Below, piece after piece: positions 18,785 through 32,626 of a DNA stretch of 64,000 nt. The stretch is taken from assembly GCF_014842925.1 (NCBI RefSeq), contig NZ_JACYXJ010000007.1, forward strand, positions 1 to 64,000. The letters run 5' to 3'. Numbering within the stretch: position 1 is the first letter of the stretch; every line of letters starts with the position of its first letter. A model generated the notes under the pieces. The model was not told the DNA's origin. It was given only the letters and a program-made list of their open reading frames with translations, and did no database searches. The position numbers and the translations under genes are program-made. The DNA is from Roseibium polysiphoniae (GTDB taxonomy: Bacteria > Pseudomonadota > Alphaproteobacteria > Rhizobiales > Stappiaceae).

Positions 18785-21700
18785 ATGGCGGGTCATCAGC
18801 GGGTTGTGCGCCTGCGCCGAACATACAACCAGTGGGTGGCGAACCAGACCCTGGAAGACTACGCGCTCCGTTTCACCGCGAAAGGCGCAAGACGCTGGTC
18901 GGCTGCTCGGGTCGCCAACACCGCGCTTGGCGCCATCTCCTTCCTTGCTCTGGAAGCCATCGGAGCAGCGATCACGCTCAATTACGGCTTCACGAATTCG
19001 GTCACGGCGATCATGGTCGTGGGTCTTCTTATCTTCATCACCGGCCTTCCGATCTCTTTCTACGCCGTCAAATATGGTGTCGACATTGACTTGCTGACCC
19101 GCGGCGCGGGCTTTGGCTACATTGGCTCGACGGTCACCTCACTGATCTACGCGAGCTTCACCTTCATCTTTTTCGCCCTTGAAGCGGCCATCATGGCGAC
19201 CGCTCTGGAACTTTTCCTCGGCATTCCACTCAATATTGGCTACCTGCTTTGCACGCTCGTGATAATTCCGATGGTGATCTACGGCATCACTCTGATCAGC
19301 CGCCTGCAAGTCTACACCCAGCCACTCTGGATCTTCCTGCAGATCCTCCCGTTTGTGTTCATCGCCTGGCAAGGCGTCGCCCCGTTCGACGAGTGGCGTT
19401 CCTTTTCCGGTCGCCTGGGCGCCGAAAACGGCCAATTCGACCTATTGCTTTTCGGTGCTGCCAGTGCCGTCGTCTTTTCCCTCATCGCCCAGATCGGCGA
19501 GCAGGTGGATTTCCTGCGCTTCCTGCCGCGTGAACGGCGAGGCCGGCGTACCCAATGGTGGCTATCCCTTCTAGCCGCAGGGCCGGGCTGGATCATCATC
19601 GGAGCGATCAAGCTGTTGATGGGGTCGTTTCTAGTGGTTCTTGCCATCGGAAACGGAATGGCGCCTGAATTCGCGGTCGAACCGACCCACCTGTACCTGA
19701 TGGCATTTCAACATGTGGCCAGCCCGGAAGTGGCAATCGCCTTGACCGGCATTTTTGTCATCGTCTGTCAGATCAAGATCAATGTGACGAATTCCTATGC
19801 CGGCTCGATCGCCTGGTCGAATTTCTTTTCGCGTCTGACCCACAGCCATCCAGGCCGGGTCGTCTGGCTGGTCTTCAACGTTGCCATCGCTCTCGCGCTG
19901 ATGGAACTGGGCGTCTACAAGGCGCTGGAGCGAACCCTTGGACTCTACTCGATCGTCGCCGTGGCTTGGATCGGCGCCTTGTTTGCAGATCTGGTGATCA
20001 ACAAGCCGCTCGGACTTAGTCCGAAACACATCGAGTTCAAACGCGCTCACCTTTACGACGTGAACCCGGTCGGCCTCGGCTCCATGGGGCTTGCCAGCCT
20101 TTTGGCCCTTGCCGCCTACTCCGGCGTGTTTGGCGAAACGGGCAGAGCCCTGGCCAGCTATATCGCCCTCTTCACCGCGGTGATCCTGGCTCCTGTTATC
20201 GCCTACCTGACAAAGGGGCGCTATTACATTGCTCGTAAGGCGGACAGCTTTGTCGCCGACGACGGCACGAAGCCTGCAAGCATGGACTGCTGTATCTGCG
20301 AACATAACTTCGAGATCGAGGACATGGCGCGCTGTCCTGTCTACTCGGGCCCAATCTGCTCACTCTGCTGCTCTCTCGATGCAAGATGCGAGGATGATTG
20401 CAAGGAAGAGGCACGGATCGGGGATCAGATCAGTTCATTTCTTCATTCGATCCTTCCAGAGCAGGTTGTCGGCAAGATCGGCGCTCGGCTCGGGCTTTAT
20501 ATCGGCGTCATGCTCGTGGTCAGCCTATCGCTGGGCGGGATCTTGTCGTTTGTCTATTTTCACCTGGATGTGGCAGCAGAGATCGGCGCAAAGGCAGGCA
20601 TTGAACAGGCGCTGACCCAGGTTTTTGTGATCCTGCTGATGATCTCAGGGGTGATGGCATGGCTTTACGTGCTTGTGCATGAAAGCCGCAAGTTCGCGAA
20701 GGAAGAAACCCGGCGCCAAACCAGCCTCCTGATGCAGGAGATCCGCGCGCACAGCAGGACAGACAAGAAGCTGCAAAAGGCCAAGGAAGTTGCGGAATCC
20801 GCCAATGAGGCCAAGAGCCGCTATGTTATCGGCATCAGCCATGAACTCCGCTCGCCGCTGAACGCCATTGCCGGATATGCCCAGTTGATGCAGCGCGACC
20901 CAGCCATTCCTGTTCACAGGCGCGACGCGGTCAAGGTCATCCAGAACTCGGCCGACCATCTCTCTGGCTTGATCGAGGGGTTGCTCGACATCTCCAAGAT
21001 CGAAGCCGGCCATCTGACAATCTACCGGGAACGTTTCAACCTTCATGAGTTCCTGACCCAGATAGTTGATATGTTCCGGCTTCAAGCTGATGCGAAAGCC
21101 CTTCGCTTCGTCTTTGCCCCTGCCGACAATCTGCCTGTCTACGTCTTTGGTGACGAAAAGCGCCTCCGGCAGATCCTGATCAATCTCCTCTCCAACGCGA
21201 TCAAAGCGACCCGCTGCGGGGAAATCACTTTGAAGGTAGAATACCACAGCCAAGTGGCCGAGTTCTTCGTTTCGGATACGGGAACAGGTATCGACCAGAA
21301 AGATCTGGAACGTATTTTCATACCTTTTGAAAGACTTGAGGGAGACGCCGCCTCGACACCCGGGACGGGATTGGGTCTCACCATCACAAAGCTCCTCAGC
21401 GAGATCATGGGCGGCGACATCCAGGTGGAAAGCACACTTGGACGGGGAAGCACATTCAACGTCCGCCTGCTTTTGTCCTCTGCCCAGGCTCCCTCAAGCA
21501 AAACCGCTGTCGAAAAGCAGATCCTCGGTTACGAAGGCCCAACGCAGACGATCATTGTCGTTGACGACGACGCAGCCCAGCGTAGCCTGATGAGTGATTT
21601 CCTCGTGCCGCTTGGCTTCAGGGTCATCGCAGTTCCCAATGCGAATGCCTGTCTTGAAGTCGTCGACACAAATCAGCCTGATGCCTTTCTGCTTGATATC

Positions 21701-22183
21701 AGCATGCCCGGGATGAATGGCTGGGAGCTCGCCAGGGTTTTGCGTCAGTCCGGCCATGGAGCGGCGGTCATGATCATGATTTCGGCAAACGCAGATGAGC
21801 GCGGACGCGACCCGGTCCATCGGATCTATCATGACGACTACCTTGTCAAACCGTTCCGGCTTTCAGAGTTGCTGGAGCGGCTCGAGAGGCACTTGAAGCT
21901 TGTCTGGCGCACCGAGGAAAGTGCGCCGATCGATCAAAGCGCTTCGGTTCATCCCTCTTTCGACAAAGCCGCCATTCCCTCAACGGAAAGCCTGCAGATG
22001 CTGCGCCAGCTCAGTCAAATGGGCTATGTGCGCGGCATAAGGGCCAAACTCGACGATATCGAGTTACAGGAGCCGCAAGCCACCGCATTTGTAACCCACA
22101 TGCGAGAGCTCGTGACAGATTTCGATATCAAACGCTACGAACAGCTATTGGAGGCAGTTGAGCATGATGATGGTCGTTCCTAG
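18785..22183 (+). CDS. Hybrid sensor histidine kinase with an N-terminal NCS1-type permease domain
   Basis: An 1132-residue inner-membrane protein. Residues 1-490 look like a complete NCS1 permease (cytosine/purine/allantoin transporter family, about 12 helices). A Cys-rich segment (about 501-540) with C-C-x-C, C-P-x-Y-S-G-P-I-C-S-L-C-C and two further Cys follows, then two more helices (about 560-640). A HisKA domain has phospho-acceptor His686 in S-H-E-L-R-S-P, a HATPase domain has N-L-L-S-N-A-I-K and G-T-G-L-G-L, and a receiver has the phospho-Asp near 969 (L-L-D-I-S-M-P). About 90 residues follow. GTG at 18749 is an alternative start, but GGGA precedes ATG 18785. It faces the urt-fmd operon and overlaps its response regulator gene, so I infer it senses the amide or a related nitrogen compound through the permease domain. 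Confidence 0.88.
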   Translation: MAGHQRVVRLRRTYNQWVANQTLEDYALRFTAKGARRWSAARVANTALGAISFLALEAIGAAITLNYGFTNSVTAIMVVGLLIFITGLPISFYAVKYGVDIDLLTRGAGFGYIGSTVTSLIYASFTFIFFALEAAIMATALELFLGIPLNIGYLLCTLVIIPMVIYGITLISRLQVYTQPLWIFLQILPFVFIAWQGVAPFDEWRSFSGRLGAENGQFDLLLFGAASAVVFSLIAQIGEQVDFLRFLPRERRGRRTQWWLSLLAAGPGWIIIGAIKLLMGSFLVVLAIGNGMAPEFAVEPTHLYLMAFQHVASPEVAIALTGIFVIVCQIKINVTNSYAGSIAWSNFFSRLTHSHPGRVVWLVFNVAIALALMELGVYKALERTLGLYSIVAVAWIGALFADLVINKPLGLSPKHIEFKRAHLYDVNPVGLGSMGLASLLALAAYSGVFGETGRALASYIALFTAVILAPVIAYLTKGRYYIARKADSFVADDGTKPASMDCCICEHNFEIEDMARCPVYSGPICSLCCSLDARCEDDCKEEARIGDQISSFLHSILPEQVVGKIGARLGLYIGVMLVVSLSLGGILSFVYFHLDVAAEIGAKAGIEQALTQVFVILLMISGVMAWLYVLVHESRKFAKEETRRQTSLLMQEIRAHSRTDKKLQKAKEVAESANEAKSRYVIGISHELRSPLNAIAGYAQLMQRDPAIPVHRRDAVKVIQNSADHLSGLIEGLLDISKIEAGHLTIYRERFNLHEFLTQIVDMFRLQADAKALRFVFAPADNLPVYVFGDEKRLRQILINLLSNAIKATRCGEITLKVEYHSQVAEFFVSDTGTGIDQKDLERIFIPFERLEGDAASTPGTGLGLTITKLLSEIMGGDIQVESTLGRGSTFNVRLLLSSAQAPSSKTAVEKQILGYEGPTQTIIVVDDDAAQRSLMSDFLVPLGFRVIAVPNANACLEVVDTNQPDAFLLDISMPGMNGWELARVLRQSGHGAAVMIMISANADERGRDPVHRIYHDDYLVKPFRLSELLERLERHLKLVWRTEESAPIDQSASVHPSFDKAAIPSTESLQMLRQLSQMGYVRGIRAKLDDIELQEPQATAFVTHMRELVTDFDIKRYEQLLEAVEHDDGRS

Positions 22184-23117
22184 CCCTGGTGACACAATCC
22201 TCGTGGTTGATGACACCCCCTCTTCCCTGGGCATGCTGACCAGTGCCCTGGAAGAATCCGGCTACACGGTGCTGGTCGCTCCGGACGGTCAAAAAGCGTT
22301 AGACATTGCCTCACGGTTTACACCCAACGCCATCCTCATGGATGCCGTGATGCCAAATCTCGATGGCTTCGAGACCAGCAAGAGACTGAAGAAAATGTGC
22401 GGTCTTGAGGATGTTCCCGTGCTCTTCATGACCGGGCTCAGCGACACTGAAAACATCGTCAAGGGTCTGGAAGTCGGCGGGGTGGACTACATCACAAAAC
22501 CGGTGAACCCGGCGGAGTTGCTGGCGCGGCTCAAAGTCCACATCGCCAATGCGCGCAGCAGCAAGAGCGCACATCTTGCCCTCGACGTCTCGGGGCGCTT
22601 CCTGCTTTCCATCGATCTTGCCGGCAGGGTCTGCTGGGCGACGCCCCAGGCCAGAATGCTTCTCGGCCTCGACAGTTCTGACGCTGCGGAGAAAGTCGAA
22701 GCCCAGGTAATGACAAATGCGCTTCCAACAGCCGTCGTCGACTGGCTGCGTCAAATGACCGGAATGTCCGGGCAGCCCTCCCCCTCCGCACGAGAGGATC
22801 TGTTTCTCTCGCTGGAGGCCGGTGAAATGCGCTTTGCCTACGTCGGCGCCATCAATTCCGGCGAGCATCTGCTGCGCGTCACGGAAGGGGGCAGCAAGGA
22901 CGGCAACGAAGCCCTTCGGGCGGAGTTCAATCTGACCGAACGGGAAGCTGAGGTTCTGACGTGGATCACAAACGGCAAATCCAACAAGGAAATCGCCGCG
23001 ATCCTGGACATGAGTCCACGAACCGTCAACAAGCACCTTGATCGCATTTTCGGAAAACTGGGCGTCGAAAACCGAACCGCCGCAGCCGTCCTGTCGCTCA
23101 AGAAGCTGCAGGACTAG
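22164..23117 (+). CDS. LuxR-type response regulator with receiver, middle domain and HTH
   Basis: A 317-residue regulator. The receiver (about 7-125) has the acidic pair V-V-D-D-T, phospho-Asp in I-L-M-D-A-V-M-P-N, and Y-I-T-K-P-V-N-P. Residues 135-235 form a PAS-like middle domain of unclear ligand. The C-terminal LuxR helix-turn-helix (about 250-315) reads L-T-E-R-E-A-E-V-L-T-W-I-T-N-G-K-S-N-K-E-I-A. GGAGG lies nine bases before ATG 22164 inside the kinase gene, and the 20-base overlap makes the two a pair. Targets could be the divergent urt-fmd operon or the palindrome-bearing promoters just downstream; neither is proven. Confidence 0.9.
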   Translation: MMMVVPSPGDTILVVDDTPSSLGMLTSALEESGYTVLVAPDGQKALDIASRFTPNAILMDAVMPNLDGFETSKRLKKMCGLEDVPVLFMTGLSDTENIVKGLEVGGVDYITKPVNPAELLARLKVHIANARSSKSAHLALDVSGRFLLSIDLAGRVCWATPQARMLLGLDSSDAAEKVEAQVMTNALPTAVVDWLRQMTGMSGQPSPSAREDLFLSLEAGEMRFAYVGAINSGEHLLRVTEGGSKDGNEALRAEFNLTEREAEVLTWITNGKSNKEIAAILDMSPRTVNKHLDRIFGKLGVENRTAAAVLSLKKLQD

Positions 23118-23248: not shown

Positions 23249-23266
23249 ATGGGGGATCGACCCCAT
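23249..23266 (+). promoter_or_regulatory. Palindrome A, ATGGGG-N6-CCCCAT, upstream of the Lys/Gly-rich protein gene
   Basis: ATGGGG-GATCGA-CCCCAT. The right half ends 22 bases before CATTCT (23289-23294), a -10-like hexamer, so the site sits just upstream of and touching the -35 position, which itself is poor. The start codon is 81 bases downstream. This geometry is shared with four more sites and suggests an activator site. The 23118-23346 gap contains nothing else I can name. Confidence 0.7.
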
Positions 23267-23346
23267 GGGATGAAAGCTGGCTGAGCGGCATTCTCCTCAC
23301 ATCGGAAACGCGGTGACACACCGCTCACAGATGAGGGGAATTTGAG

Positions 23347-23820
23347 ATGCTTGCACTGTCCATTTTGAAGAAAGCCGCCAAGACGATCACCATGGTCATG
23401 GTCGCCGCCGCAATGTCCTACGGCGCCGTTGAAACCTTTGATCCGTCCATCGCGGAGGCGGGCGCGAAGAAGAAGGTCCAGTTCGTGTCCAAGGGGATCG
23501 GCAAGGTCGGCGGCTTCCTGGAAAAAGCGGGCCGCAAGGCCCAGGCAAAACGCGGCATCGGCAAACATGTCGGCGGCATTTTGAAGAACACCGGCAAGGG
23601 CTTCAAGAAGACCAGCAAGGGCGTCAACAAGGGCATGGGCAAAGTCTCCCGTGGCACGAACAAGTTCCTCGGCAAATCCAAGGTTGGTCGCGGCCTCAAG
23701 AAAGGTTGGCGTAATGTGAAGCAGCGTCAGGATCAGACCATCAACCGGGCCTTCGGCAACTGCGGCGGCCGGTTCTGCAAAGGCGCACGTGAAGGGGTCC
23801 GGTTGTTCGCCCCGATGTAA
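23347..23820 (+). CDS. Exported, strongly basic Lys/Gly-rich protein of unknown function
   Basis: A 157-residue protein I do not recognise. A signal-like N-terminus (L-K-K-A-A-K-T then T-M-V-M-V-A-A-A-M-S-Y-G) leads to possible cleavage near A-E-A-G-A at about 38. The rest is extremely basic and Gly-rich with loosely repeated K-G-x-G-K-V/ K-K-T-S-K-G-V-N-K-G units every 10-12 residues (about 45-125), then N-C-G-G-R-F-C-K-G with two Cys near the end. It could bind nucleic acid, acidic polysaccharide or membranes. GAGGGGAA precedes the ATG. It has its own palindrome-bearing promoter and a strong terminator. Confidence 0.8.
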   Translation: MLALSILKKAAKTITMVMVAAAMSYGAVETFDPSIAEAGAKKKVQFVSKGIGKVGGFLEKAGRKAQAKRGIGKHVGGILKNTGKGFKKTSKGVNKGMGKVSRGTNKFLGKSKVGRGLKKGWRNVKQRQDQTINRAFGNCGGRFCKGAREGVRLFAPM

Positions 23821-23839
23821 GGAACAAGGGTGATCACCC

Positions 23840-23871
23840 AAAATCGGCCGGATGAGAATCCGGCCGATTTT
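23840..23871 (+). terminator. Rho-independent terminator of the Lys/Gly-rich protein gene
   Basis: A perfect 14-base stem, AAAATCGGCCGGAT (23840-23853) with ATCCGGCCGATTTT (23858-23871), encloses a GAGA tetraloop and runs into a T-rich tail. It isolates the gene from the next promoter, whose palindrome begins 29 bases further on. Confidence 0.9.
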
Positions 23872-23899
23872 CTTTTGTCGAAGAGCATTCACCGTGCAG

Positions 23900-23917
23900 A
23901 TGGGGGATCCACCCCAT
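23900..23917 (+). promoter_or_regulatory. Palindrome B, ATGGGG-N6-CCCCAT
   Basis: ATGGGG-GATCCA-CCCCAT, followed after exactly 22 bases by TATCTT (23940-23945) as the -10-like hexamer. The gene it serves starts at 23976, 58 bases after the site. The half-sites and spacer are identical to palindrome C. Confidence 0.72.
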
Positions 23918-23975
23918 GGGGGGGCAAGGAAAGCCCCGGTATCTTTTCACCATGGAAACAGGAAAGGACAGACCG

Positions 23976-24668
23976 ATGAGGAAATTCATTTTTGCAGCCG
24001 GCGCATTGCTCGCCTCAATGGGACCAGGGTTCGCATCGGGCGCTATGGCCGGAGAGGGCCTCGATTTGTCCGGTTACAAGCCAATACCGACAGCCATCCA
24101 TCTTGATTGGACGCCCGAAAAGTCGATGGCCGTCCTTCGATTTTCAACCGGTTGCCTATCGACGCAAACCGGACACATGGTCGCGGAGGATCTGTCGGTT
24201 GAACTGGATCGTGAAACTGGCCGTCTTGAAATCAACGGGAGTTATCTCCAACAACCTCCGGAGAACCCGAGAATGATTGGCTCGGCGGATTGTATGGGTT
24301 CAAGAGTGAAAACAGTCGAAATTCCGCATTTGACAGGTGGCAACTATGAAGTGCTCAGGAATGGCAAATTGCTTTGGAACGTTGAGCTGGCTGACAAGCC
24401 TCTCGAGATGACCTTGGGCCTGGACGAGGCGAAGGCAGGTCAACTGATCAAGCGCAAAACGTTCAAACCGTCATCGAAGGCGTGGATGAGACACGAGGGT
24501 GTCAATGCATCAAGAGGCGCGCTCAGGGCAACAGGCTCGGTGCGGGTTTCCAAAGGAACTCTGGTCTCTGAGAAGAGACAGACACACTCTTCGATGGGAC
24601 CGGGTAAAACGGAAAACCGGCCATGGCGCTTTTGCTACTGCATGCCAAGGAGCATTGGCGGTAACTGA
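23976..24668 (+). CDS. Exported protein, W-P-E-K family member 1, with an extended basic tail
   Basis: A 230-residue exported protein of unknown function. The signal peptide (1-25) ends S-G-A-M-A-G-E. It shares an ordered set of motifs with the protein encoded at 29592: W-T-P-E-K (45-49), F-S-T-G-C-L (56-61), L-D-R-E (77-80) and D-C-M (105-107), with equal spacing from P-E-K to G-C-L. The two conserved Cys may form a disulfide. After about residue 150 it has a basic, low-complexity tail of some 80 residues that the paralogue lacks, which may reflect a lost stop codon. The ATG at 23976 follows AGGAAAGGA. Confidence 0.75.
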   Translation: MRKFIFAAGALLASMGPGFASGAMAGEGLDLSGYKPIPTAIHLDWTPEKSMAVLRFSTGCLSTQTGHMVAEDLSVELDRETGRLEINGSYLQQPPENPRMIGSADCMGSRVKTVEIPHLTGGNYEVLRNGKLLWNVELADKPLEMTLGLDEAKAGQLIKRKTFKPSSKAWMRHEGVNASRGALRATGSVRVSKGTLVSEKRQTHSSMGPGKTENRPWRFCYCMPRSIGGN

Positions 24669-24702
24669 CAGACATGAGAGGATATCGTGGGCGGCGGTGT
24701 TG

Positions 24703-25035
24703 CTACTTGCTCTTCCTGAAATCCTCATCGGCGTTGCGCATTTCAAGCGGAGTTACAATGCCGTCCTTGTTCTTGTCGATGACATTGAAGGCATACCCAT
24801 AGGCTCCGAAGAACCTGATTTTGCGCGCGGTCGATTGCCCGAAATCGGCCATCGCGCGAACAAACGTCCTGAATTCCTTGCGCGTGAGAACCCGATCCTT
24901 GTTCACGTCAGCCTTCAGGAAAGCGGCGATTTCGGATTTCTTCGGTTTCAAGTTAGCGGTCGCGAGCGACGATTGCGGTGTCCAGCCACTGAGACCAAGT
25001 GCCAGCGATGCGATCAAGATGATCCGATTTCTCAT
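24703..25035 (-). CDS. Small exported EF-hand protein
   Basis: A 110-residue protein with a signal peptide (about 1-26) and two canonical 12-residue EF-hand loops. The first is D-V-N-K-D-R-V-L-T-R-K-E and the second D-K-N-K-D-G-I-V-T-P-L-E, both with Asp1, Asn3, Asp5 and Glu12, so calcium binding in the periplasm is likely. The ATG at 25035 is preferred over a GTG at 25044. It is convergent with the W-P-E-K gene upstream. No ATGGGG palindrome lies in front of it, so it seems separate from the shared regulon. Confidence 0.8.
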   Translation of the reverse strand: MRNRIILIASLALGLSGWTPQSSLATANLKPKKSEIAAFLKADVNKDRVLTRKEFRTFVRAMADFGQSTARKIRFFGAYGYAFNVIDKNKDGIVTPLEMRNADEDFRKSK

Positions 25036-25138
25036 GAGCTCCACTCCCTCACCCTACGGAATTTATCTCAGGCTGAGGGAATTGCAAAAAGCCAAATGCG
25101 GCCAATACTGGAGAATTCTGAGGCCTAGCCAGTCGCGT

Positions 25139-27163
25139 TCAAGCCGCAAGCGGGATTTTCAGGACAAACTGCGTCCCGCGGCCTTGTTCTGACCTGCACT
25201 CCAGATCCATGCCGTTGCCTTTGGAAAGCTCAAAGCAGACTGAAAGCCCAAGTCCATGGCCCTCTGAATTCTCGCCTTTATTGTAGGCTTGCGAGAAGGC
25301 CGCGATTTCGCTGTCGTCCATGCCCGGTCCTGTGTCCAGGACGTTCAGCTCAATCTCGTCTCCGGCGCGCCTTACACCCAAGAGCACCGCACCGGTTTGG
25401 GTGTATTTCACTGCATTGGATACAAGGTTGCTGACAATGCGCATGAGGATAAGCGGCGGAACCGCAATTTTTTGCGAGGACGACACTCGTCGCAAGCGCA
25501 AGCCCTTGGAGATGGCTTCTTCATTAAACATCTGCTGTACGGTGTCGATCACGAGCGAGATTTCATAGGGCTCCTGCTCATCTTCGCTTGAGGTCGCATT
25601 GTTCCTGGGCTCACCCGTCGGCGGCAGGGCTTCCCGAACGTTCGACCCGGCGTCGTCATCGTGGGCCCGGTTGGGCGTTGTCTCCTTCAGATAGTCGTTG
25701 GACAGGGCCTCCATGTAGTCGAAGGCTTCGGTTAGGCGTTGTTTGACCTGCGGATCGAGATGCTCCGACAGGCTGTCGACGTTCATTCTGAGGGAGGTGA
25801 TGGGCTGCTTCAGGTCATGAGAGGCCGTCGCCAGTTGCCTTTGGCGCAGGCTCGCCAGTTCCCTGGCTCTGGTGTAGTTGCGCTCTGTCTCCAGCAGTTC
25901 CCGGCTTCTTTTGGCTTCCGCATCGAGAGCTGCCAATTCTGCCTGAACGGCCGATGCATGTTTCTTGCGTAGATTGATGATGTGGCCAGTCAGGCCGGTC
26001 ATTGTGGTGATCAGTAGAACAGTGAAGATGCCTTTGACCGAGGTGGACACAGGAATGATTTCGGCCTGACTGCCAATCACCATCACGGCTATCAAAACAA
26101 CGACCATCAGGACACCAAGGCCTGAAATGATCATGCTTGTCAGATGGATCTCGCCCTGATCGCGTCGCCAACGACTTCCCGCCAGGAAAACAGAGGCAAA
26201 CATCAGCGCAAGCAGTACGTAGCCGACAAAGGCTGCATAGGTGCCTGGCGAAAGAAGTGAGACAATGAAGCCTATGACCGAGAGCCCAGCGAGCGACGTG
26301 AGCGCCAGGGAAAAGAACGTTTCCCGCCCGTCGATCGTGGTCGAGCGACCGGAAATTAGAAAGCCGGTGCCCGACAGTGCATAGAGAAAGAAGAACCCGA
26401 CAGGAGACTGCAAATCCGGAGTGTCGGGGAAAAAGAACCGAAACCACAGTCCGTCGATATAGGCGATAAAACCCAGTCCGACACTAAACTGTGCTGCGTA
26501 AAGGATGCCGATCCAGTTCTTCATCGCCACGTGAAAGCCGAAGAAGAACACAAGACAGGAAATGGCGAAGGCATAAAAAGCTGTGTGGGAAATTCCGGAT
26601 GAAAAGGCTGAGGCTTCCAGTTCAACGGGTGTTTCCAACGCCATATCGAAGGATTGAAAGGGACCAAACTTGAAGTTCACCAGGAGAGTGATCTCTTCTT
26701 GCGGTGCGATCTCGAAAACGGGCGTCCTTAGCCGGGTAACCGAGTGATCTTCGGGTATGAAGGGCTCGAAGATCGAATAATTCAACAGGCTTTCAGTGAA
26801 GCCGCTGTCCCGCACCACATAGGCATCGACCTCGCTTACAAGCGGAAGATCAAGCACCAGAACAAAGGGATCGGGTGCGCGGCCGTCATCCAGTGTGGCA
26901 TTCAAAATGCGGACTGCGGCCCAGGCTTCGGGCGCGTAGTTCGTATCGAGCGCGGAGGCCTCAAGCACTGCCTGGAACTCACCGGCGCGGAAGCTTTTCA
27001 GGATTTGCCCGAGGGAAGAGGATGGGTCCGAGAGATAGGTCAGACTGTGCTTGAGGTCCGCAATACCTCTGCCGGGCTGCAGCTCCACGCTGCCTGCCCA
27101 GGCCGTTCCCGCGAACTGAAGAACGAAAAACATCCATGCCAAAAATCTCAGGGTTCTGGTCAT
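25139..27163 (-). CDS. Sensor histidine kinase with 7TMR-DISM input domain
   Basis: A 674-residue membrane kinase. A signal peptide (1-23) precedes a periplasmic DISMED2-like beta domain (about 30-180, with the Y-S-I-F-E-P-F pattern). Seven transmembrane helices (about 185-395), a coiled linker rich in A-E-L-A-A-L-D-A-E-A-K-R and a HisKA region with His449 in A-S-H-D-L-K-Q-P follow. The HATPase has N-L-V-S-N-A-V-K-Y-T, D-T-G-P-G-M and G-H-G-L-G-L-S-V. DISM receptors often sense carbohydrates or other envelope ligands. It is divergent from the NarL-type regulator at 27217, with 53 bases between, so they likely form a pair. Confidence 0.9.
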   Translation of the reverse strand: MTRTLRFLAWMFFVLQFAGTAWAGSVELQPGRGIADLKHSLTYLSDPSSSLGQILKSFRAGEFQAVLEASALDTNYAPEAWAAVRILNATLDDGRAPDPFVLVLDLPLVSEVDAYVVRDSGFTESLLNYSIFEPFIPEDHSVTRLRTPVFEIAPQEEITLLVNFKFGPFQSFDMALETPVELEASAFSSGISHTAFYAFAISCLVFFFGFHVAMKNWIGILYAAQFSVGLGFIAYIDGLWFRFFFPDTPDLQSPVGFFFLYALSGTGFLISGRSTTIDGRETFFSLALTSLAGLSVIGFIVSLLSPGTYAAFVGYVLLALMFASVFLAGSRWRRDQGEIHLTSMIISGLGVLMVVVLIAVMVIGSQAEIIPVSTSVKGIFTVLLITTMTGLTGHIINLRKKHASAVQAELAALDAEAKRSRELLETERNYTRARELASLRQRQLATASHDLKQPITSLRMNVDSLSEHLDPQVKQRLTEAFDYMEALSNDYLKETTPNRAHDDDAGSNVREALPPTGEPRNNATSSEDEQEPYEISLVIDTVQQMFNEEAISKGLRLRRVSSSQKIAVPPLILMRIVSNLVSNAVKYTQTGAVLLGVRRAGDEIELNVLDTGPGMDDSEIAAFSQAYNKGENSEGHGLGLSVCFELSKGNGMDLECRSEQGRGTQFVLKIPLAA

Positions 27164-27216
27164 TTCCTCTAGGGCATGTCAGTTTCGCGCGGATGTCACC
27201 GGATGGATAGTGAGCC

Positions 27217-27870
27217 GTGAACGAGCAAAAATACAATGCAATTATTGCAGACGATCACGCAATTGTACGGGCAGGGCTGAAAGACGCTTTGGAAAAACCC
27301 GGATTGATCGAGCCGGATGGCATCAAGGTAGTAGCCGAAGCAGGAGATGGGCTGACGGCGATTGCAGAAATCCGGAAACATCGGCCACACCTTCTCCTGC
27401 TGGATGTGTCCATGCCGATGGCCGGCGGTGTGGAAGTTCTTGTCGAAGCCCGCCGATGGTCCCGGGAAACAAAGGTGGTCGTGTTGACCGGCGTCTCCGC
27501 CGTTGGGCTTGTCTCTGACCTGATCGAGGCCGGGGTGGACGGGCTTTTCTCCAAGGCGTCGGACAATACCGAATTCTACCAAAAGCTTCCGGGCATCCTT
27601 CGCGGCCAAAGGCATATCTCGGAGCACTTCCTGAGCATTCTCGAGGAAACGCCGAAGTTGCCTATGCTGACTGACAGGGAGCGCCAGACACTCAACATGA
27701 TCCTCGCCGGTCGATCCAACAAGGAAATCGCCGAAGGGCTGGGGATCAGTATCAAGACGGTCGACAAACACCGCACCAGCTTGATGCAAAAATTGAATGT
27801 GCGCTCTGTGCCGCAGCTGATGGCGCGCGCATTGAAGGAAGGAATGATCGATCCTTCCAAGGAGTTGTAG
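27217..27870 (+). CDS. NarL/LuxR-family response regulator
   Basis: A 217-residue regulator. The receiver (about 5-122) has I-I-A-D-D-H, phospho-Asp in L-L-L-L-D-V-S-M-P and L-F-S-K-A-S-D-N as the Lys switch segment. The HTH (about 150-213) reads L-T-D-R-E-R-Q-T-L-N-M-I-L-A-G-R-S-N-K-E-I-A-E-G-L-G-I-S-I-K-T-V-D-K-H-R. The start is a GTG. It is divergent from the DISM kinase gene and lies 39 bases before palindrome C, in the middle of the five palindrome-bearing promoters. Regulators of this class bind short inverted repeats, so it is one of two candidates for the palindrome-binding protein. Confidence 0.9.
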   Translation: MNEQKYNAIIADDHAIVRAGLKDALEKPGLIEPDGIKVVAEAGDGLTAIAEIRKHRPHLLLLDVSMPMAGGVEVLVEARRWSRETKVVVLTGVSAVGLVSDLIEAGVDGLFSKASDNTEFYQKLPGILRGQRHISEHFLSILEETPKLPMLTDRERQTLNMILAGRSNKEIAEGLGISIKTVDKHRTSLMQKLNVRSVPQLMARALKEGMIDPSKEL

Positions 27871-27908
27871 CCGTTTCACCTAAAGGGAGGGCGCGAAAAC
27901 GTCGGAAA

Positions 27909-27926
27909 ATGGGGGATCCACCCCAT
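27909..27926 (+). promoter_or_regulatory. Palindrome C, ATGGGG-N6-CCCCAT
   Basis: ATGGGG-GATCCA-CCCCAT, identical to palindrome B. TAAATT (27948-27953) follows 21 bases after it as the -10-like hexamer, one base closer than at the other sites. The first gene of the unit starts at 27982. Confidence 0.7.
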
Positions 27927-27981
27927 GCCATTGAACTTCGGCAGGCGTAAATTGGACGCCTAGACATGGAAAGGGAACGTC

Positions 27982-28665
27982 ATGCTCAAGAGCCTTAAGT
28001 TCATCGGCAAACTCGCATTTTGCATCACTGCTGTCTTAGTGGCTGCCGTCATCACTTTCGACGCGCAGGCCCAAACCAGCGAAACGTCCCTTGAGGGCTT
28101 CCGCGAGCTGAAGGTTGCTCCCGGACTTGCCGTTGGCGACGACGTCATCGACGTGTTGATGCCATTTCTGCGTGGCCACCCCGAAAGCGAGGAAGGCAAA
28201 CCCGGTCTTGAGGTGAAACTTCGAAAGGCTGACTACGGCTTTCAGGTCGATATCATCCAGACAGGTTTCCTGGATGACTCCGTTTCAGGCCACCACTTCC
28301 GCGGCGGCGTTATCCGCACGAGCAATGGGCAGTGGGAACTGCTTAACATGCATCTCAGGCCGATCTGCGCCCGGGGCCAAAACGTCGACGGCTATTGCAA
28401 AACCATCGCAAAGCCGGCTCCCCCTGCAATGTTCATTATGCCCGGTGCCAATTCGGCAGGTGCGCTCCATTGCGTAGATGTTGCTGCCGAGGACGTGCTG
28501 AATGTGCGCGAAGGGCCGGGCTCGAGATTTGCAACTGTTGGCGCTCTGGCGCACGACAACTGTAATGTTGCCGTATCAAATGCGTGTGAAGGCAAATGGT
28601 GCAAAGTTCGCTCCGGCGATCTTTCTGGCTGGGCACACACCGGCTATCTTTATGCTGCAAACTAG
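27982..28665 (+). CDS. Exported protein with a C-terminal bacterial SH3 domain
   Basis: A 227-residue protein. The signal peptide (about 1-33) ends F-D-A-Q-A-Q. Residues 35-145 form an unrecognised domain with G-F-R-E-L-K-V-A-P-G-L-A-V-G-D-D-V. The C-terminal 60 residues match a bacterial SH3 (SH3b) fold: D-V-L-N-V-R-E-G-P-G-S-R-F-A-T-V-G-A-L and W-C-K-V-R-S-G-D-L-S-G-W-A-H-T-G-Y-L. Six or so Cys suggest disulfides in the periplasm. SH3b domains often bind cell wall. It is the first gene after palindrome C, with the next gene 30 bases downstream. Confidence 0.82.
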   Translation: MLKSLKFIGKLAFCITAVLVAAVITFDAQAQTSETSLEGFRELKVAPGLAVGDDVIDVLMPFLRGHPESEEGKPGLEVKLRKADYGFQVDIIQTGFLDDSVSGHHFRGGVIRTSNGQWELLNMHLRPICARGQNVDGYCKTIAKPAPPAMFIMPGANSAGALHCVDVAAEDVLNVREGPGSRFATVGALAHDNCNVAVSNACEGKWCKVRSGDLSGWAHTGYLYAAN

Positions 28666-28695
28666 GTACAGCGAGAGTGCTGCCCAGGAGAGGAA

Positions 28696-29490
28696 ATGGA
28701 TGTTTTGCATCCAAGGAAGATTGTGAAAGACCGAATGCTCAATTTCCAAATGCAAGGGTCAGTTTGTGGCAGGTTCTGTTTGGGTATGGCGACAGCCTTG
28801 ACCGTCTGGGCGTTGTCAGAGGCTGCTCTGGCTGGTGACGGCCCAAGGCCGACCTATTTGGAAAGCGGCAGTAATGATCTAATCCAGTTTCAAAAAGGCG
28901 GCGTTCCAACGCCAGAGATCACGGCGTTGGCCCAATCGTCTGCTGCACGAGAGGCAAAGCAGATGACCAACGCAGCGCGGGTGCAAAAAAGCCCAAACAC
29001 TAGAAGCCTGGGCATTGCACGTTCTGACAATCCGACGCCGGGTGCAGGGCTCCTGCAGTCTGCACCGCCCGAGTTGCCTGAGGCGTCCTCTGACGCTGCC
29101 GTCGCCTCTTCGGCAGCACCGCAGGCGGAGATGGTGCAGAAGAAGCAGCGAGCCAGGGTCGGGGTCCGCAGTCTGCCTTCTGCAGCTAGCCCGGAGGCGC
29201 AGCAGGCCCCTCTTGAGGAGGATATCGATCTGCGCCTCGTCACCATATGTCTGACCAATCCGAAACACGCGCAGGGCGCAAAGGGCTTTGACATTCGCCG
29301 TGACGGCCTGCCCCGCTACGTCGCAGAAGTCGGTGAGATGGCTTGTGCTCGGTTCGAGCCGACCCGTCAGATGCTCTATTTCTGGAAGGCTGACGGATCA
29401 GGTGAGCTGACCCCTACGCTCTCCAGCCGTTTGGACCTTAATGACTCTGACGGCACGCTGGTCACGCTCGAATGGTTGCGAGATCACTAA
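28696..29490 (+). CDS. Exported Ala/Pro/Ser-rich protein of unknown function
   Basis: A 264-residue protein I do not recognise. A long N-terminus leads to a hydrophobic core F-C-L-G-M-A-T-A-L-T-V-W-A-L and likely cleavage after E-A-A-L-A. Residues 50-170 are low-complexity and rich in Ala, Ser, Pro and Gln, probably an extended linker. The last 85 residues look folded, with Cys in V-T-I-C-L-T and E-M-A-C-A-R and an F-D-I-R-R-D-G-L-P segment. AGGAGAGGAA immediately precedes the ATG. The 30-base gap suggests co-transcription with the SH3 protein under palindrome C. Confidence 0.75.
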   Translation: MDVLHPRKIVKDRMLNFQMQGSVCGRFCLGMATALTVWALSEAALAGDGPRPTYLESGSNDLIQFQKGGVPTPEITALAQSSAAREAKQMTNAARVQKSPNTRSLGIARSDNPTPGAGLLQSAPPELPEASSDAAVASSAAPQAEMVQKKQRARVGVRSLPSAASPEAQQAPLEEDIDLRLVTICLTNPKHAQGAKGFDIRRDGLPRYVAEVGEMACARFEPTRQMLYFWKADGSGELTPTLSSRLDLNDSDGTLVTLEWLRDH

Positions 29491-29514
29491 ATCATACCTG
29501 AAGGTGCCGTCCGA

Positions 29515-29532
29515 ATGGGGTCTTGGCCCCAT
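29515..29532 (+). promoter_or_regulatory. Palindrome D, ATGGGG-N6-CCCCAT
   Basis: ATGGGG-TCTTGG-CCCCAT. The spacer differs from sites A-C while both half-sites are unchanged, which argues that the half-sites are what is conserved. TACCTT (29555-29560) lies exactly 22 bases after it. The gene starts at 29592. Confidence 0.72.
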
Positions 29533-29591
29533 GCCGATATGTCTGTGGGACCGATACCTTTGCTCATCGAACCTGAGCAAAGGACAAAACC

Positions 29592-30116
29592 ATGAAAATC
29601 TCCGCAAAATCTACCACAGCCGCACTGTCGTTGGCCGCTCTTGTCATGAGCTCCGGCGCCGCCACTGCTTTTGGGCTCAGAGACGCATTCGTAAAATTCG
29701 AGGGTTATACCTTTCTGACATTGGACTCCGATCCTTCTTTGACCCCCGGTATCGTCGCCAAGAACGAGCAGCAGAAAGGCCGTTGGTTTAAACGAAAGCC
29801 GAAGGTGTCTTCCCGGTGGTCTCCTGAAAAACAAACCCTGATATTGATCATCTCATCGGGGTGCCTGCAATCCAGCGCAGGAGACCCGGGGGACCTCGTG
29901 AAGGTCTCGCTCGACCGTGAAAATCGACGCATCGTAGTGACCGGGGCCTTCTGGTACCAAGTTTCCTCAAAGAAACAGACGCGGGATTGTATGCGGACAC
30001 AAACCTATGAACGGGTCTTTCGGGATCTGGACTATGGAGCCTACACATTGCAGGTCGGCGATGAGCCTGAAACACGCTTGATGCTTGGGAATCCTAAATT
30101 CCATGATCCCGTTTGA
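29592..30116 (+). CDS. Exported protein, W-P-E-K family member 2
   Basis: A 174-residue exported protein. The signal peptide (1-26) ends G-A-A-T-A-F. It shares with the protein at 23976 the motifs W-S-P-E-K (76-80), I-S-S-G-C-L (87-92), L-D-R-E (107-110) and D-C-M (132-134). The segment between the signal and the first motif is about 30 residues longer and basic (K-G-R-W-F-K-R-K-P-K). It ends about 40 residues after D-C-M, so this is probably the native family length. Function is unknown. It is followed by a strong terminator. Confidence 0.78.
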   Translation: MKISAKSTTAALSLAALVMSSGAATAFGLRDAFVKFEGYTFLTLDSDPSLTPGIVAKNEQQKGRWFKRKPKVSSRWSPEKQTLILIISSGCLQSSAGDPGDLVKVSLDRENRRIVVTGAFWYQVSSKKQTRDCMRTQTYERVFRDLDYGAYTLQVGDEPETRLMLGNPKFHDPV

Positions 30117-30138
30117 GCTGTCCGAACGGACACGATGA

Positions 30139-30169
30139 AACCGGCGGGTGGGCTGCCCGCCGGTTTTCT
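30139..30169. terminator. Terminator between convergent genes
   Basis: A 10-base stem, AACCGGCGGG (30139-30148) with CCCGCCGGTT (30156-30165), has a seven-base loop and continues into TTCTT on the plus strand. It ends the W-P-E-K gene and may also stop transcription of the convergent VWA gene, whose minus-strand flank reads TTTC. Confidence 0.88.
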
Positions 30170-30187
30170 TGTGTTTCGTGGATAAGG

Positions 30188-31978
30188 CTACTGTTTTGCG
30201 GTCTGTGCGAGCCGCAAGATTGTCAGAAACTCCGAGCGGTATCCGAAGCGGTCGACGCCCTTGTTTTCCCTGGCGAGCTTTTCGCTGTCTTCGTAACTCC
30301 AGTTACCCAGGTAGTCCGTGCCTTTAAGCAACTGGCCGAAGCTGGCGACGGAGGCGGCGAAGAGGGTTTCGGAAACGGGGATATTCTGATCTGTCTCTCT
30401 TACCGGCGTTTCGATCAACTTGCTTTCGTCTTCGCCGGGCGCCTTGTAGCGAAGTTTCACGAAAGCCAATTCACTGGAGTATGCGTCGTCGACACTTGTT
30501 GGTGTTTCTTCTGAAGGGCTGTAGCGGCCGTCGGGGAACTTGATTGCAGGAGAACCAACGGGCGTGATTTCGTAGAGCGCGGTGACATTGTGGCCGGCAC
30601 CGATGTCACCGGCGTCCACCTTGTCGTTCTTGAAGTCCTCCGTCTTCAAGGCACGTGTCTCATAGCCGATCAGCCGGTATTCCGTGACGGTCTGTGGATT
30701 AAACTCGACCTGGATCTTCACATCCTGCGCGATCATAGAGATTGAGCTGACAACCTGATCTACGAGCACTTTCCGAGCCTCGGAAACCGTATCGATATAG
30801 GCGGCAACACCCTGACCGTTTTGCGCAAGCGTCTGCATGAGTTCGTCGTTGTAGTTGCCGTGCCCGAAGCCCAAGACAGAGAGCCCGGTGCCCTGTTCCC
30901 TTTTGCCCGAGACGAAGCGTTTCAGGCTGTCAGGATCGGAAATCCCAACATTGAAGTCACCATCAGTCGCCAGAATGACGCGGGTTTGTTCACCTTCGCC
31001 CGTCATTTTTTCTGCAAGCGCATAAGCCCCCTTTAAGCCGTCATGACCCGCGGTCGACCCACCGGACGTCAGCGCGTTGATCTTGTCGAGTATCTTGTCC
31101 CTGTCTGTCACTCGGGTGGGTTCGAGCAGAACACCCGCCTCTCCGGCATAGGTGACAATCGCAACCTCATCCTCGTCGCGCAGGGAGGTGAGAAGGAGCC
31201 TGAAGGATTGTTGCAATAGGGGCAACTTTGTCTCGTGCTTCATCGACCCGGAAGTATCGATCAGAAACACAAGGTTTTGCGGCGGCAGCTCGGCCAGGGG
31301 AATTTTGTGTCCTTGGATGCCGACTTGCATCAGTTTCGTGTGCTTGTTCCAAGGCGTTTGCACCACGGACACATTGGTCGAGAAGGGTGCCCCCCCTGCC
31401 TCAGGGACCTGGTAGTCGTAGTCGAAATAGTTGAGCATCTCCTCGACGCGAACCGCGTCCGATTTTGGAAGGCGCCCATTGGTAAGGGATCGGCGTACAT
31501 AGGAGTAGGATGCCGTGTCAACATCAATGGAAAACGTCGAAACCGGATCATCACTGACGTTTTTCAAAGGGTTTGCTTCCACCGAGGCAAATTGATCGCC
31601 TTCAGGGGAAAGAAATTGCGGAGGAGGCACATCTGCGCGACGGATCGCGCCTCCGTGTTCTGGGCCTTTCAGAGCGGTCCCTCTTCCTTGCGGTGAAGAG
31701 AGGTTGAGGACGCCACCGCCGCTCGCGCTTGGGGTGCTAGTCTCCGGCGTCGGCGCACGAAGGGTCTTGGTGAAGTTGGACATAGGCGAAGGGGCGGTTT
31801 GCGCGTCTTTTGCCGCGGCGTGTTCATCTTGAGCGAGCTGCACGGCGACTGGTTGTTGGGGCGGGTTTTCCTCCTTGGTCGGCCAGTTGATAGACTGGAC
31901 GGCGATGGCCACAAAGGCAAGCGTGAGGATGGAGGCTGAGCTGATGAGGATGGCTCTCGGTATGTGATTGCCGATCAT
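30188..31978 (-). CDS. YfbK-like von Willebrand factor A domain protein
   Basis: A 596-residue protein with an N-terminal membrane anchor (about 8-30) and a variable Gln/Pro/Ala-rich stretch. The YfbK-type region begins P-V-S-T-F-S-I-D-V-D-T-A-S-Y-S-Y-V-R-R, with E-E-M-L-N-Y-F-D-Y-D-Y. The VWA domain carries the MIDAS motif D-T-S-G-S (from Asp241) and A-T-D-G-D-F-N-V-G. The C-terminal DUF3520-like domain ends A-Q-T-A-K-Q. The bulk is probably periplasmic. Function is not established. The ATG at 31978 follows GGAAAGGA. A TATAAG about 35 bases upstream may be the -10. It interrupts the row of palindrome-controlled genes. Confidence 0.88.
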   Translation of the reverse strand: MIGNHIPRAILISSASILTLAFVAIAVQSINWPTKEENPPQQPVAVQLAQDEHAAAKDAQTAPSPMSNFTKTLRAPTPETSTPSASGGGVLNLSSPQGRGTALKGPEHGGAIRRADVPPPQFLSPEGDQFASVEANPLKNVSDDPVSTFSIDVDTASYSYVRRSLTNGRLPKSDAVRVEEMLNYFDYDYQVPEAGGAPFSTNVSVVQTPWNKHTKLMQVGIQGHKIPLAELPPQNLVFLIDTSGSMKHETKLPLLQQSFRLLLTSLRDEDEVAIVTYAGEAGVLLEPTRVTDRDKILDKINALTSGGSTAGHDGLKGAYALAEKMTGEGEQTRVILATDGDFNVGISDPDSLKRFVSGKREQGTGLSVLGFGHGNYNDELMQTLAQNGQGVAAYIDTVSEARKVLVDQVVSSISMIAQDVKIQVEFNPQTVTEYRLIGYETRALKTEDFKNDKVDAGDIGAGHNVTALYEITPVGSPAIKFPDGRYSPSEETPTSVDDAYSSELAFVKLRYKAPGEDESKLIETPVRETDQNIPVSETLFAASVASFGQLLKGTDYLGNWSYEDSEKLARENKGVDRFGYRSEFLTILRLAQTAKQ

Positions 31979-32060
31979 GGGGGATCCTTTCCCGACGCGA
32001 CACACGAGCGCTTATACGCAAGCGTTGACGACGAAATTGGGTTTCAGGGATGTGACGAGG

Positions 32061-32091
32061 GAGCCACCGTCCTGGTGTCAGGCGGTGGCTC
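32061..32091 (-). terminator. Hairpin downstream of the small secreted protein gene
   Basis: GAGCCACCG (32061-32069) pairs with CGGTGGCTC (32083-32091), and an inner CCTG-GTGT-CAGG extends the stem with one bulged base. It lies 16 bases after the gene at 32107. No clear T-run follows on the minus strand, so it may be a stabilising hairpin or a weak terminator. Confidence 0.5.
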
Positions 32092-32106
32092 GGCTGGGTG
32101 AATGGA

Positions 32107-32514
32107 TCAGCGGAAACTGATCCGGAATGTCTTGCCCTTGGTACAGGTGACCGTATTGGAATTGGCGTACCAGGTTTTCAGGCGATCCCACTTGCCGTTG
32201 GACGTCAGCTTGCGAAACTGAACCCGAATGTAAGTCTTCGCATTGTTCACGCCTTCGAGGTTGCGCTTCCACTTGTAGCTGCCGCCGTGGCTTATCACCC
32301 GGTTGGAGATGTTTTCCGAACGCCAGCGATTGGACCCCAAGTCGCGGTAGTCGAGATCGTAGACCTGGATCGGGGCACCGGTATTGTTCTGGACTGAGAT
32401 ATTGACGTTCTTGCAGCGATCGAAGGCGGCGGCGGCCTGGTTCATCGGAGCAACGGAGGCAATGCCTGCAATGGCGAACACGGCGGCGGCAGCGGCGGTT
32501 GCGAAGAGTTTCAT
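32107..32514 (-). CDS. Small exported basic protein of unknown function
   Basis: A 135-residue protein with a clear signal peptide (about 1-31, ending Q-A-A-A-A) and a mature part of about 100 residues. The mature domain starts F-D-R-C-K-N-V-N-I-S-V-Q-N-N-T-G-A-P-I-Q-V-Y-D-L-D-Y and ends T-C-T-K-G-K-T-F-R-I-S-F-R. It is rich in Lys, Arg and Asn with alternating hydrophobics, so a small beta-sandwich closed by a Cys pair is likely. I do not recognise the family. AGGAAAGG precedes ATG 32514. Its promoter carries palindrome E on the minus strand. Confidence 0.78.
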   Translation of the reverse strand: MKLFATAAAAAVFAIAGIASVAPMNQAAAAFDRCKNVNISVQNNTGAPIQVYDLDYRDLGSNRWRSENISNRVISHGGSYKWKRNLEGVNNAKTYIRVQFRKLTSNGKWDRLKTWYANSNTVTCTKGKTFRISFR

Positions 32515-32608
32515 GGGTCTATTCCTTTCCTGATATGTCTGCTCGTTCAGAGCGGATGTCATCGGTTTGTCGATGAAGGAAAGGTGCCCGACGGCGCGCT
32601 TTGACTGT

Positions 32609-32626
32609 ATGGGGTCAACACCCCAA
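32609..32626 (-). promoter_or_regulatory. Palindrome E, TTGGGG-N6-CCCCAT, minus strand
   Basis: Read toward the gene, TTGGGG-TGTTGA-CCCCAT, with one mismatch in the left half. CACCTT (32586-32581) follows exactly 22 bases after the right half, as at sites A, B and D, and the DNA beyond (TTCATCGA) resembles that of site D. The start codon is about 95 bases downstream. The rest of the 32515-32817 gap shows nothing I can name. Confidence 0.68.

What the first reader, a model, noticed from the sequence alone, without database searches (positions are those of the whole stretch)
23249..32626. A local regulon: five promoters with the palindrome ATGGGG-N6-CCCCAT at fixed distance from the -10
Seen directly: ATGGGG-N6-CCCCAT at 23249, 23900, 27909 and 29515, and TTGGGG-N6-CCCCAT on the minus strand at 32626-32609. 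At four sites a (T/C)A(T/C)(T/C)(C/T)T hexamer starts exactly 22 bases after the right half; at the fifth (27909) TAAATT starts after 21. The spacer differs between sites while the half-sites do not. All five precede genes for exported proteins, and I found no full copy elsewhere in the 64 kb. The site would replace or touch the -35, which is poor in every case, the geometry of an activator. Inference: one dimeric regulator switches on a secreted-protein set that I do not know as a described system.
Basis: partly seen in the sequence, partly recalled or inferred. Interest (0 to 1): 0.88.

Follow-up and report, generated by a model that had tools for sequence, protein, structure and literature searches.

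The report
Secreted-protein regulon of a two-component regulator
A marine Roseibium-type bacterium carries five promoters marked with one 18-base palindrome, and comparison with relatives indicates that a neighbouring two-component regulator uses it to switch on proteins sent out of the cell.

Summary
ATGGGG-N6-CCCCAT occurs exactly four times in the 4.58 Mb genome, all within 6.3 kb; the fifth site differs by one base. The likely reader is the NarL/FixJ response regulator RR2 (27217-27870), divergent from a DISM-type histidine kinase (25139-27163), not the LuxR-type regulator at 22158-23117. Loci fetched by RR2 protein alone have a convincing site in 25 of 26 cases, down to 50% identity in Gammaproteobacteria. 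In the genus, 16 of 16 genomes with RR2 have the palindrome against 3 of 21 without (p = 9e-8); outside the genus the palindrome alone is at background (10 of 22 genomes without RR2). A -10-like hexamer recurs at exactly 22 nt (19 of 27 in a reduced set; next best offset 4). Sites precede diverse exported proteins and an RTX-toxin acyltransferase clade (8 of 9 clean sites, one degenerate; paralogs 0 of 4). Binding, activation and signal are inferred. NarL-family operators are a known kind; I did not find this system in print.

The parts
23249..23266 (+). operator 1 (ATGGGGGATCGACCCCAT), with -10-like CATTCT at 23289-23294
   Evidence: site before the same gene in L047, L100 and L101
23347..23820 (+). 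target D: 157-aa basic, glycine-rich exported protein, start 80 nt after operator 1
   Evidence: no Pfam hit
23900..23917 (+). operator 2 (ATGGGGGATCCACCCCAT), with -10-like TATCTT at 23940-23945
23976..24668 (+). target C1: exported protein of the C family, start 58 nt after operator 2
   Evidence: no Pfam hit for 23979-24668
24703..25044 (-). EF-hand protein with N-terminal hydrophobic segment, downstream of HK2 on the same strand; companion, found in a minority of loci
25139..27163 (-). HK2: 674-aa histidine kinase with DISM-type sensor region, divergent from RR2
   Evidence: HK2-like hit (E <= 1e-5) divergent from RR2 in 34 of 37 loci
27217..27870 (+). RR2: NarL/FixJ-type response regulator, the proposed reader of the palindrome
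27909..27926 (+). operator 3 (ATGGGGGATCCACCCCAT), with TAAATT at 27948-27953 (offset 21)
27982..28665 (+). target A: 227-aa exported protein with a C-terminal SH3_3 match just below its cut-off
28696..29490 (+). G: protein 31 nt behind A, probably the same transcript
   Evidence: palindrome directly upstream of relatives in L047 and L048
29515..29532 (+). operator 4 (ATGGGGTCTTGGCCCCAT), with -10-like TACCTT at 29555-29560
29592..30116 (+). target C2: 174-aa exported protein, distant paralog of C1 (22% identity)
   Evidence: weak model
30188..32005 (-). YfbK-type von Willebrand factor A protein downstream of B; first gene behind the palindrome in L037 and L042 (158 and 212 nt)
32107..32514 (-). 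target B: 135-aa exported protein, predicted beta-sandwich
   Evidence: in 11 of 37 same-genus genomes, all 11 with RR2 and with the operator
32609..32626 (-). operator 5 (TTGGGGTGTTGACCCCAT read on the minus strand), with -10-like CACCTT at 32586-32581

Best explanation
The palindrome is the operator of the NarL/FixJ-type response regulator RR2, which forms a two-component system with the divergently encoded DISM-type kinase HK2. When HK2 is stimulated, RR2 is phosphorylated and dimerises on WTGGGG-N6-CCCCAT (core mostly TRTYSA). It sits centred about 43.5 bp upstream of the start, where the -35 element would be, and recruits RNA polymerase to a poor -10 (YANNNT, often TACCTT or CACCTT) usually exactly 22 nt further on (class II-like activation). 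The output is a set of exported proteins encoded around the regulator and, in relatives, unlinked ones including an RTX-toxin acyltransferase. Shown by sequence: the sites, their spacing, the oriented core, co-occurrence of site and RR2, and the exported look of most targets. Inferred: direct binding by RR2, phosphorylation by HK2, activation rather than repression, and the signal.
For: Four exact sites in the genome, all here. Loci fetched with the RR2 protein alone carry a convincing site in 25 of 26 cases and a doubtful one in L058, down to 50% identity in Gammaproteobacteria (several of these loci are close relatives of each other); of five weaker matches (25-33%, L061-L065) one has a one-mismatch site. 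Same genus: 16 of 16 with RR2 against 3 of 21 without. Reverse search with palindrome plus -10 in 398 phylum genomes led to four genomes of one family (f49) with RR2 at 49-69% identity, the site close behind RR2 in three. The hexamer is at 22 nt in 44 of 64 curated rows and 19 of 27 in a reduced set, next best offset 6 and 4. A signal-peptide-like ORF follows at 40-130 nt in 45 of 57 oriented matches in RR2 genomes (6 of the 45 are acyltransferases without a real signal peptide, so 39) against 1 of 23 elsewhere. Acyltransferase clade: 8 of 9 clean sites and one degenerate, 50-57% paralogs 0 of 4. In 18 RR2 proteins I177, S178, K180, T181 and R186, at what I take from memory to be the recognition helix, are invariant.
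Against: No binding or expression data. Outside the genus the palindrome alone is not diagnostic: 10 of 22 genomes of other genera without RR2 and 145 of 385 of the class have at least one. Genomes with RR2 also hold stray palindromes without hexamer or exported ORF (L030, L091, L099; others listed were not examined). G060 has two sites before exported proteins (hexamers GATATT and TATCTG) but no RR2 at E <= 1e-25 in an assembly 93% complete with 6% contamination. L058 and L147 have RR2-like proteins without a convincing site, and L140's sites are unlinked. The A promoters of relatives mostly keep only A and T of the hexamer. HlyC and RTX targets are not signal-peptide exports.
Confidence: 0.86

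Rival explanations
1. The other LuxR-type response regulator (22158-23117), next to the transporter-fused kinase, reads the palindrome.
For: It ends about 130 nt before operator 1 and also has a GerE/LuxR DNA-binding domain.
Against: tblastn (E <= 1e-4, at least 40% of its length) found no relative of it in any of the 26 RR2 loci L035-L060, which carry the palindrome. Whether it occurs elsewhere in those genomes was not searched.
Confidence: 0.03
2. RR2 binds the palindrome but represses, the site blocking RNA polymerase at the -35.
For: The site covers the place of the -35, which would also suit a repressor.
Against: The hexamers are poor and no -35 hexamer is left to block; the strict 22-nt spacing over many promoters is what contact with polymerase would require, and repressor sites are usually less strictly placed (recalled).
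Confidence: 0.1
3. The palindrome acts as RNA (5' leader hairpin) or as a terminator-like structure rather than as a DNA operator.
For: It is an inverted repeat usually about 55-105 nt before start codons.
Against: The -10-like hexamer lies between it and the gene at fixed distance, so it would not be transcribed from that start; the asymmetric core and co-occurrence with a DNA-binding regulator fit an operator.
Confidence: 0.03
4. The sites are copies of a repeat spread locally by duplication.
For: Three of five spacers are nearly identical and C1/C2 are paralogs.
Against: By eye the sequence outside the 18 bp and the hexamer differs between sites; unrelated genes in distant lineages carry the same arrangement.
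Confidence: 0.02

Closest known systems
UvrY/SirA/GacA (NarL/FixJ family) and its 18-bp inverted repeat TGTAAG-N6-CTTACA
   Same: Same regulator family, same 6-N6-6 operator plan of 18 bp (PMC4682653, passages seen).
   Different: Half-sites differ (TGTAAG against ATGGGG). The UvrY site of csrB is centred at -183/-182, far upstream of a small-RNA gene (same passages); here the site is near -43.5 before exported-protein genes.
CrbR and the ACTU motif of acetate-use genes
   Same: A LuxR-family response regulator with a short imperfect inverted repeat found by comparative promoter analysis and needed for activation (PMC5715377, passages seen).
   Different: Different motif, kinase type (SLC5-fused) and targets.
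LadS/RetS-type 7TMR-DISM histidine kinases
   Same: HK2 and relatives match 7TMR-DISM_7TM (8 of 13) or DISMED2 (4 of 13). The review PMC7695008 (passages) reports that calcium binds the DISMED2 pocket of LadS.
   Different: LadS and RetS are described there as orphan kinases acting on GacS; HK2 has its own divergent response regulator, and no receiver or Hpt match was reported.
LuxR/lux box class II activation
   Same: Operator centred near -43.5 here against -42.5 (the latter recalled, no call).
   Different: RR2 has a receiver domain, not an autoinducer domain.

Membership tests
NarL/FixJ response regulators | receiver domain followed by LuxR/GerE helix-turn-helix | tested here: met
   Response_reg 1.3e-18 and GerE 1.5e-18, both above cut-off; D12, D13, D63 and K113 invariant in 18 sequences
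NarL/FixJ response regulators | dimer binds an inverted repeat | tested here: inconclusive
   co-occurrence of inverted repeat and RR2; no binding assay
UvrY/SirA/GacA equivalogs | passes the curated family score | tested here: not met
   106.6 bits against cut-off 280
UvrY/SirA/GacA equivalogs | operator TGTAAG-N6-CTTACA | tested here: not met
   the repeat found is WTGGGG-N6-CCCCAW
7TMR-DISM histidine kinases | DISM sensor domains plus kinase core | tested here: inconclusive
   HisKA and HATPase_c in 13 of 13; 7TMR-DISM_7TM in 8 of 13, DISMED2 in 4 of 13; for the window protein DISMED2 scores 19.7 bits, below its cut-off of 22
LadS-type kinases | calcium-responsive sensor | not testable with these tools
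   no solved relative of the sensor region found by sequence at E <= 1
class II activator-dependent promoters | operator in place of the -35 at fixed distance from the -10 | tested here: met
   offset 22 in 44 of 64 curated rows and 19 of 27 in a reduced set; assumes that the hexamer is the -10

The most novel reading that the evidence does not exclude
RR2/HK2 is the core of a 'secretome switch' kept across Alpha- and Gammaproteobacteria: regulator, oriented operator and promoter geometry stay constant while the exported cargo changes lineage by lineage (small beta-sandwich proteins, SH3 and EF-hand proteins, lipoprotein-like proteins, YfbK-type proteins, RTX proteins and their acyltransferase), triggered by a LadS-like sensor that may read calcium or a host surface.
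Probability: 0.25. Interest if true: 0.7.

Novelty: new member of a known kind. Interest (0 to 1): 0.55.

Why it matters
It gives an operator that can be read from sequence and is tied to one regulator family, and so predicts which unknown exported proteins in marine bacteria are deployed together. Of the six exported-protein genes of the window scanned, five have no Pfam match. Joint control with an RTX acyltransferase in relatives hints at contact with other cells. The strict palindrome-to-hexamer spacing makes a clean test case for activation by NarL-family regulators.

Tried and rejected
Structure of target B (mean pLDDT 80.5): beta-sandwich; Foldseek found nothing at E <= 0.001, best 4.8e-3 (PUD-1/2, then ostreolysin, transthyretin and others) with TM about 0.2-0.4, so no function is claimed. 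Structure of C2 is weak (pLDDT 66.5), best hit E 0.15. Calcium as the signal: an EF-hand gene lies beside HK2 in the window, but related genes appear in few loci (window, L035, L047, L048, L049; window, L047, L048, L141 by motif), so it is not a core part. Plasmid search with RR2: no match at E <= 1e-40. The class sample of 385 genomes had RR2 only in our own and G208, too few for a co-occurrence test (most genomes had only 7 candidates scored). G047 has 12 palindromes, 11 of them TTGGGG...CCCCAA forms that look like a separate repeat; I used only the one beside its RR2. The 41% relative in G643 was not counted as RR2; its site is among the 23 controls and has no exported ORF. In one search five of the 12 misses are readings towards the other side of a palindrome; three second sites of control genomes (G455, G467, G784) were not fetched; L088, L091, L099, L101 and L102 were not on its list (L088, L101 and L102 repeat sites of genomes covered elsewhere; L091 and L099 are sites without a promoter-like hexamer). 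The reduced set of 27 still holds two sites in both orientations (L048 4813, L092 2478). Not looked at: the G001 site and the second sites of G018 and G022 in the genus comparison.
Full report
Observation. WTGGGG-N6-CCCCAW has 5 matches in the window against 0.03 expected, 0 of 100 shuffles reaching 5. In the whole genome the exact ATGGGG form occurs four times, all within 23249-29532; the reversed control gives 0. Six other one-mismatch sites in the genome have no YANNNT at 22 nt and no signal-peptide-like ORF (0 of 6).

Which regulator. Two LuxR-type response regulators lie nearby. I fetched loci with the protein of the one at 27217-27870 (RR2); 31 loci came back, named Roseibium/Labrenzia/Stappia, then other Alphaproteobacteria and Gammaproteobacteria. 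That the window is Roseibium-like is my inference from these titles. The 26 loci with RR2 at 50% identity or more (L035-L060) each hold a site with at most one mismatch; 25 are convincing, L058 is doubtful. Several of the 26 are near relatives of each other (for example L051, L052, L054, L055), and some are the same organisms as genomes of the G series. Of the five weaker matches (25-33%, L061-L065) only L063 has a one-mismatch site. The other regulator, 22158-23117, was found by tblastn in none of L035-L060. An HK2-like kinase hit (E <= 1e-5) lies divergent from RR2 in 34 of 37 loci examined; ten of these 37 were chosen after site or RR2 hits in whole genomes.

Phylogenetic profile. Among 37 same-genus genomes (own included), 16 have RR2 at E <= 1e-55, three of them (G005, G009, G016) only a 66-68% form. 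WTGGGG-N6-CCCCAW is present in 16 of these 16 and in 3 of 21 others (Fisher p = 8.7e-8, not corrected for relatedness). The three exceptions hold five sites; the two examined (G018, G022) lie inside open frames of 446 and 495 codons and lack the hexamer. Outside the genus the palindrome alone is no marker: it is in 10 of 22 genomes of other genera without RR2 and in 145 of 385 class genomes. In the other direction, palindrome plus hexamer (TGGGG-N6-CCCCAW-N22-YANNNT) was sought in 398 genomes of the phylum and hit 28. Of the 27 besides our own, five have a relative of RR2 at E <= 1e-40: 69, 67, 50, 49 and 41% identity; I count the first four, all of family f49, which I take to be Rhodobacteraceae (no call names it). 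In three of them the site is close behind RR2; G730 has its sites on other contigs. The other 22 genomes are the chance level.

Promoter geometry. I collected 64 curated rows, oriented by the gene behind them and not by the hexamer (three rows have no assigned gene). YANNNT starts exactly 22 nt after the palindrome in 44 of 64, the next best offset reaching 6; in a reduced set of 27, 19 against 4. In those 27, A is at the second hexamer position in 25. If the hexamer is the -10, the palindrome covers about -52 to -35, centre -43.5. At 27909 and in its nearest relative (L100) the hexamer is at 21; other orthologs of that promoter mostly keep only the A and the T at 22. The N6 core reads mostly T/G-A/G-T-C/T-G/C-A and points to the gene.

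Targets. With a fixed rule (start 40-130 nt downstream, ribosome-binding-like sequence, signal-peptide-like start, at least 90 codons), 45 of 57 oriented matches of palindrome plus hexamer in RR2 genomes pass against 1 of 23 in the control genomes. Six of the 45 are acyltransferases passing through an internal hydrophobic stretch, so 39 is the fair number; five of the 12 misses are readings towards the other side of a palindrome. The rule is crude and not a signal-peptide predictor. In the window the units are D, C1, A-G, C2 and B-vWA. C1 and C2 are distant paralogs (22%); in L085 and L048 C-like and A-like parts sit in one protein (seen by eye; A match in L048). B occurs in 11 of 37 genus genomes, all with RR2, and all 11 have the operator with at most one mismatch and CACCTT at 22 nt.

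Unlinked targets. An RTX-toxin acyltransferase clade (HlyC, PF02794) at 77-100% identity to the L087 query occurs in nine genus genomes, all with RR2. Eight have the operator with at most one mismatch 61-62 nt before the start and TAGCTT or TAGTTT at 22 nt; the ninth (G023) has two mismatches and TAGTTC. In six of the nine it lies away from RR2. Four paralogs (50-57% identity) in the same genomes lack the operator, as does the 32% protein of G013, which has no RR2. In L049 the site precedes an RTX-repeat protein (PF00353). The present genome has no such acyltransferase at E <= 1e-15. Not every palindrome of an RR2 genome is a target: L030, L091 and L099 have neither hexamer nor exported ORF.

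Mechanism. Shown by sequence: sites, spacing, oriented core, co-occurrence, exported look of targets. Inferred: RR2 binds, HK2 phosphorylates it, and the effect is activation, because the promoters have a poor -10, no -35 and a strict operator distance. The signal is unknown. HK2 belongs near DISM-type kinases (7TMR-DISM_7TM in 8 of 13 relatives, DISMED2 in 4 of 13; the window protein is just below the DISMED2 cut-off). The review PMC7695008 (passages) reports that calcium binds DISMED2 of LadS; with an EF-hand protein here and RTX proteins elsewhere, calcium is a candidate, no more.

What is known. The operator has the 6-N6-6 plan of UvrY (TGTAAG-N6-CTTACA, PMC4682653, passages), but RR2 is not a UvrY equivalog (106.6 bits against 280). 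CrbR and its ACTU motif (PMC5715377, passages) are a parallel case. Paper searches for the motif and for such a system found none describing it: searches gave 0 papers; one search gave 32 papers (15 listed) and 965 (12 listed), of which I saw the listings only. Only open-licence PubMed Central papers were searched.

Exceptions. G060 has two sites before exported proteins (L018 with GATATT, L103 with TATCTG at 22 nt) without RR2 at E <= 1e-25, in an incomplete and contaminated assembly. L140 and L147 have RR2 relatives but no linked site.

Noticed in passing
18749-22183: Hybrid histidine kinase with a long N-terminal multi-span membrane (transporter-like) region, a Cys-rich stretch before the kinase core and a C-terminal receiver, overlapping the start of a LuxR-type response regulator (22158-23117) with an extra middle region; CrbS-like in outline, not tested further.
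   Followed up: no
G047: Eleven dispersed TTGGGG-N6-CCCCAA palindromes with cores such as ACTGGT or ACTAGT, on many contigs; looks like a different repeat or operator family.
   Followed up: no
L049:250-5438: An RTX-repeat protein behind the operator is followed by a caspase-domain (Peptidase_C14) protein with a weak peptidoglycan-binding match.
   Followed up: partly
L085:2211-3122 and L048:668-1429: Proteins that carry both a C-like and an A-like part, which are separate genes under separate operators in the window.
   Followed up: partly
L095, L096, L097 (G005, G016, G009): A second RR2/HK2 clade (65-68% identity) in the same genus, sitting next to the operator-bearing acyltransferase gene.
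   Followed up: partly
L018 and L103 (G060): Two operator-like sites before exported proteins in a genome where no RR2 relative was found.
   Followed up: partly
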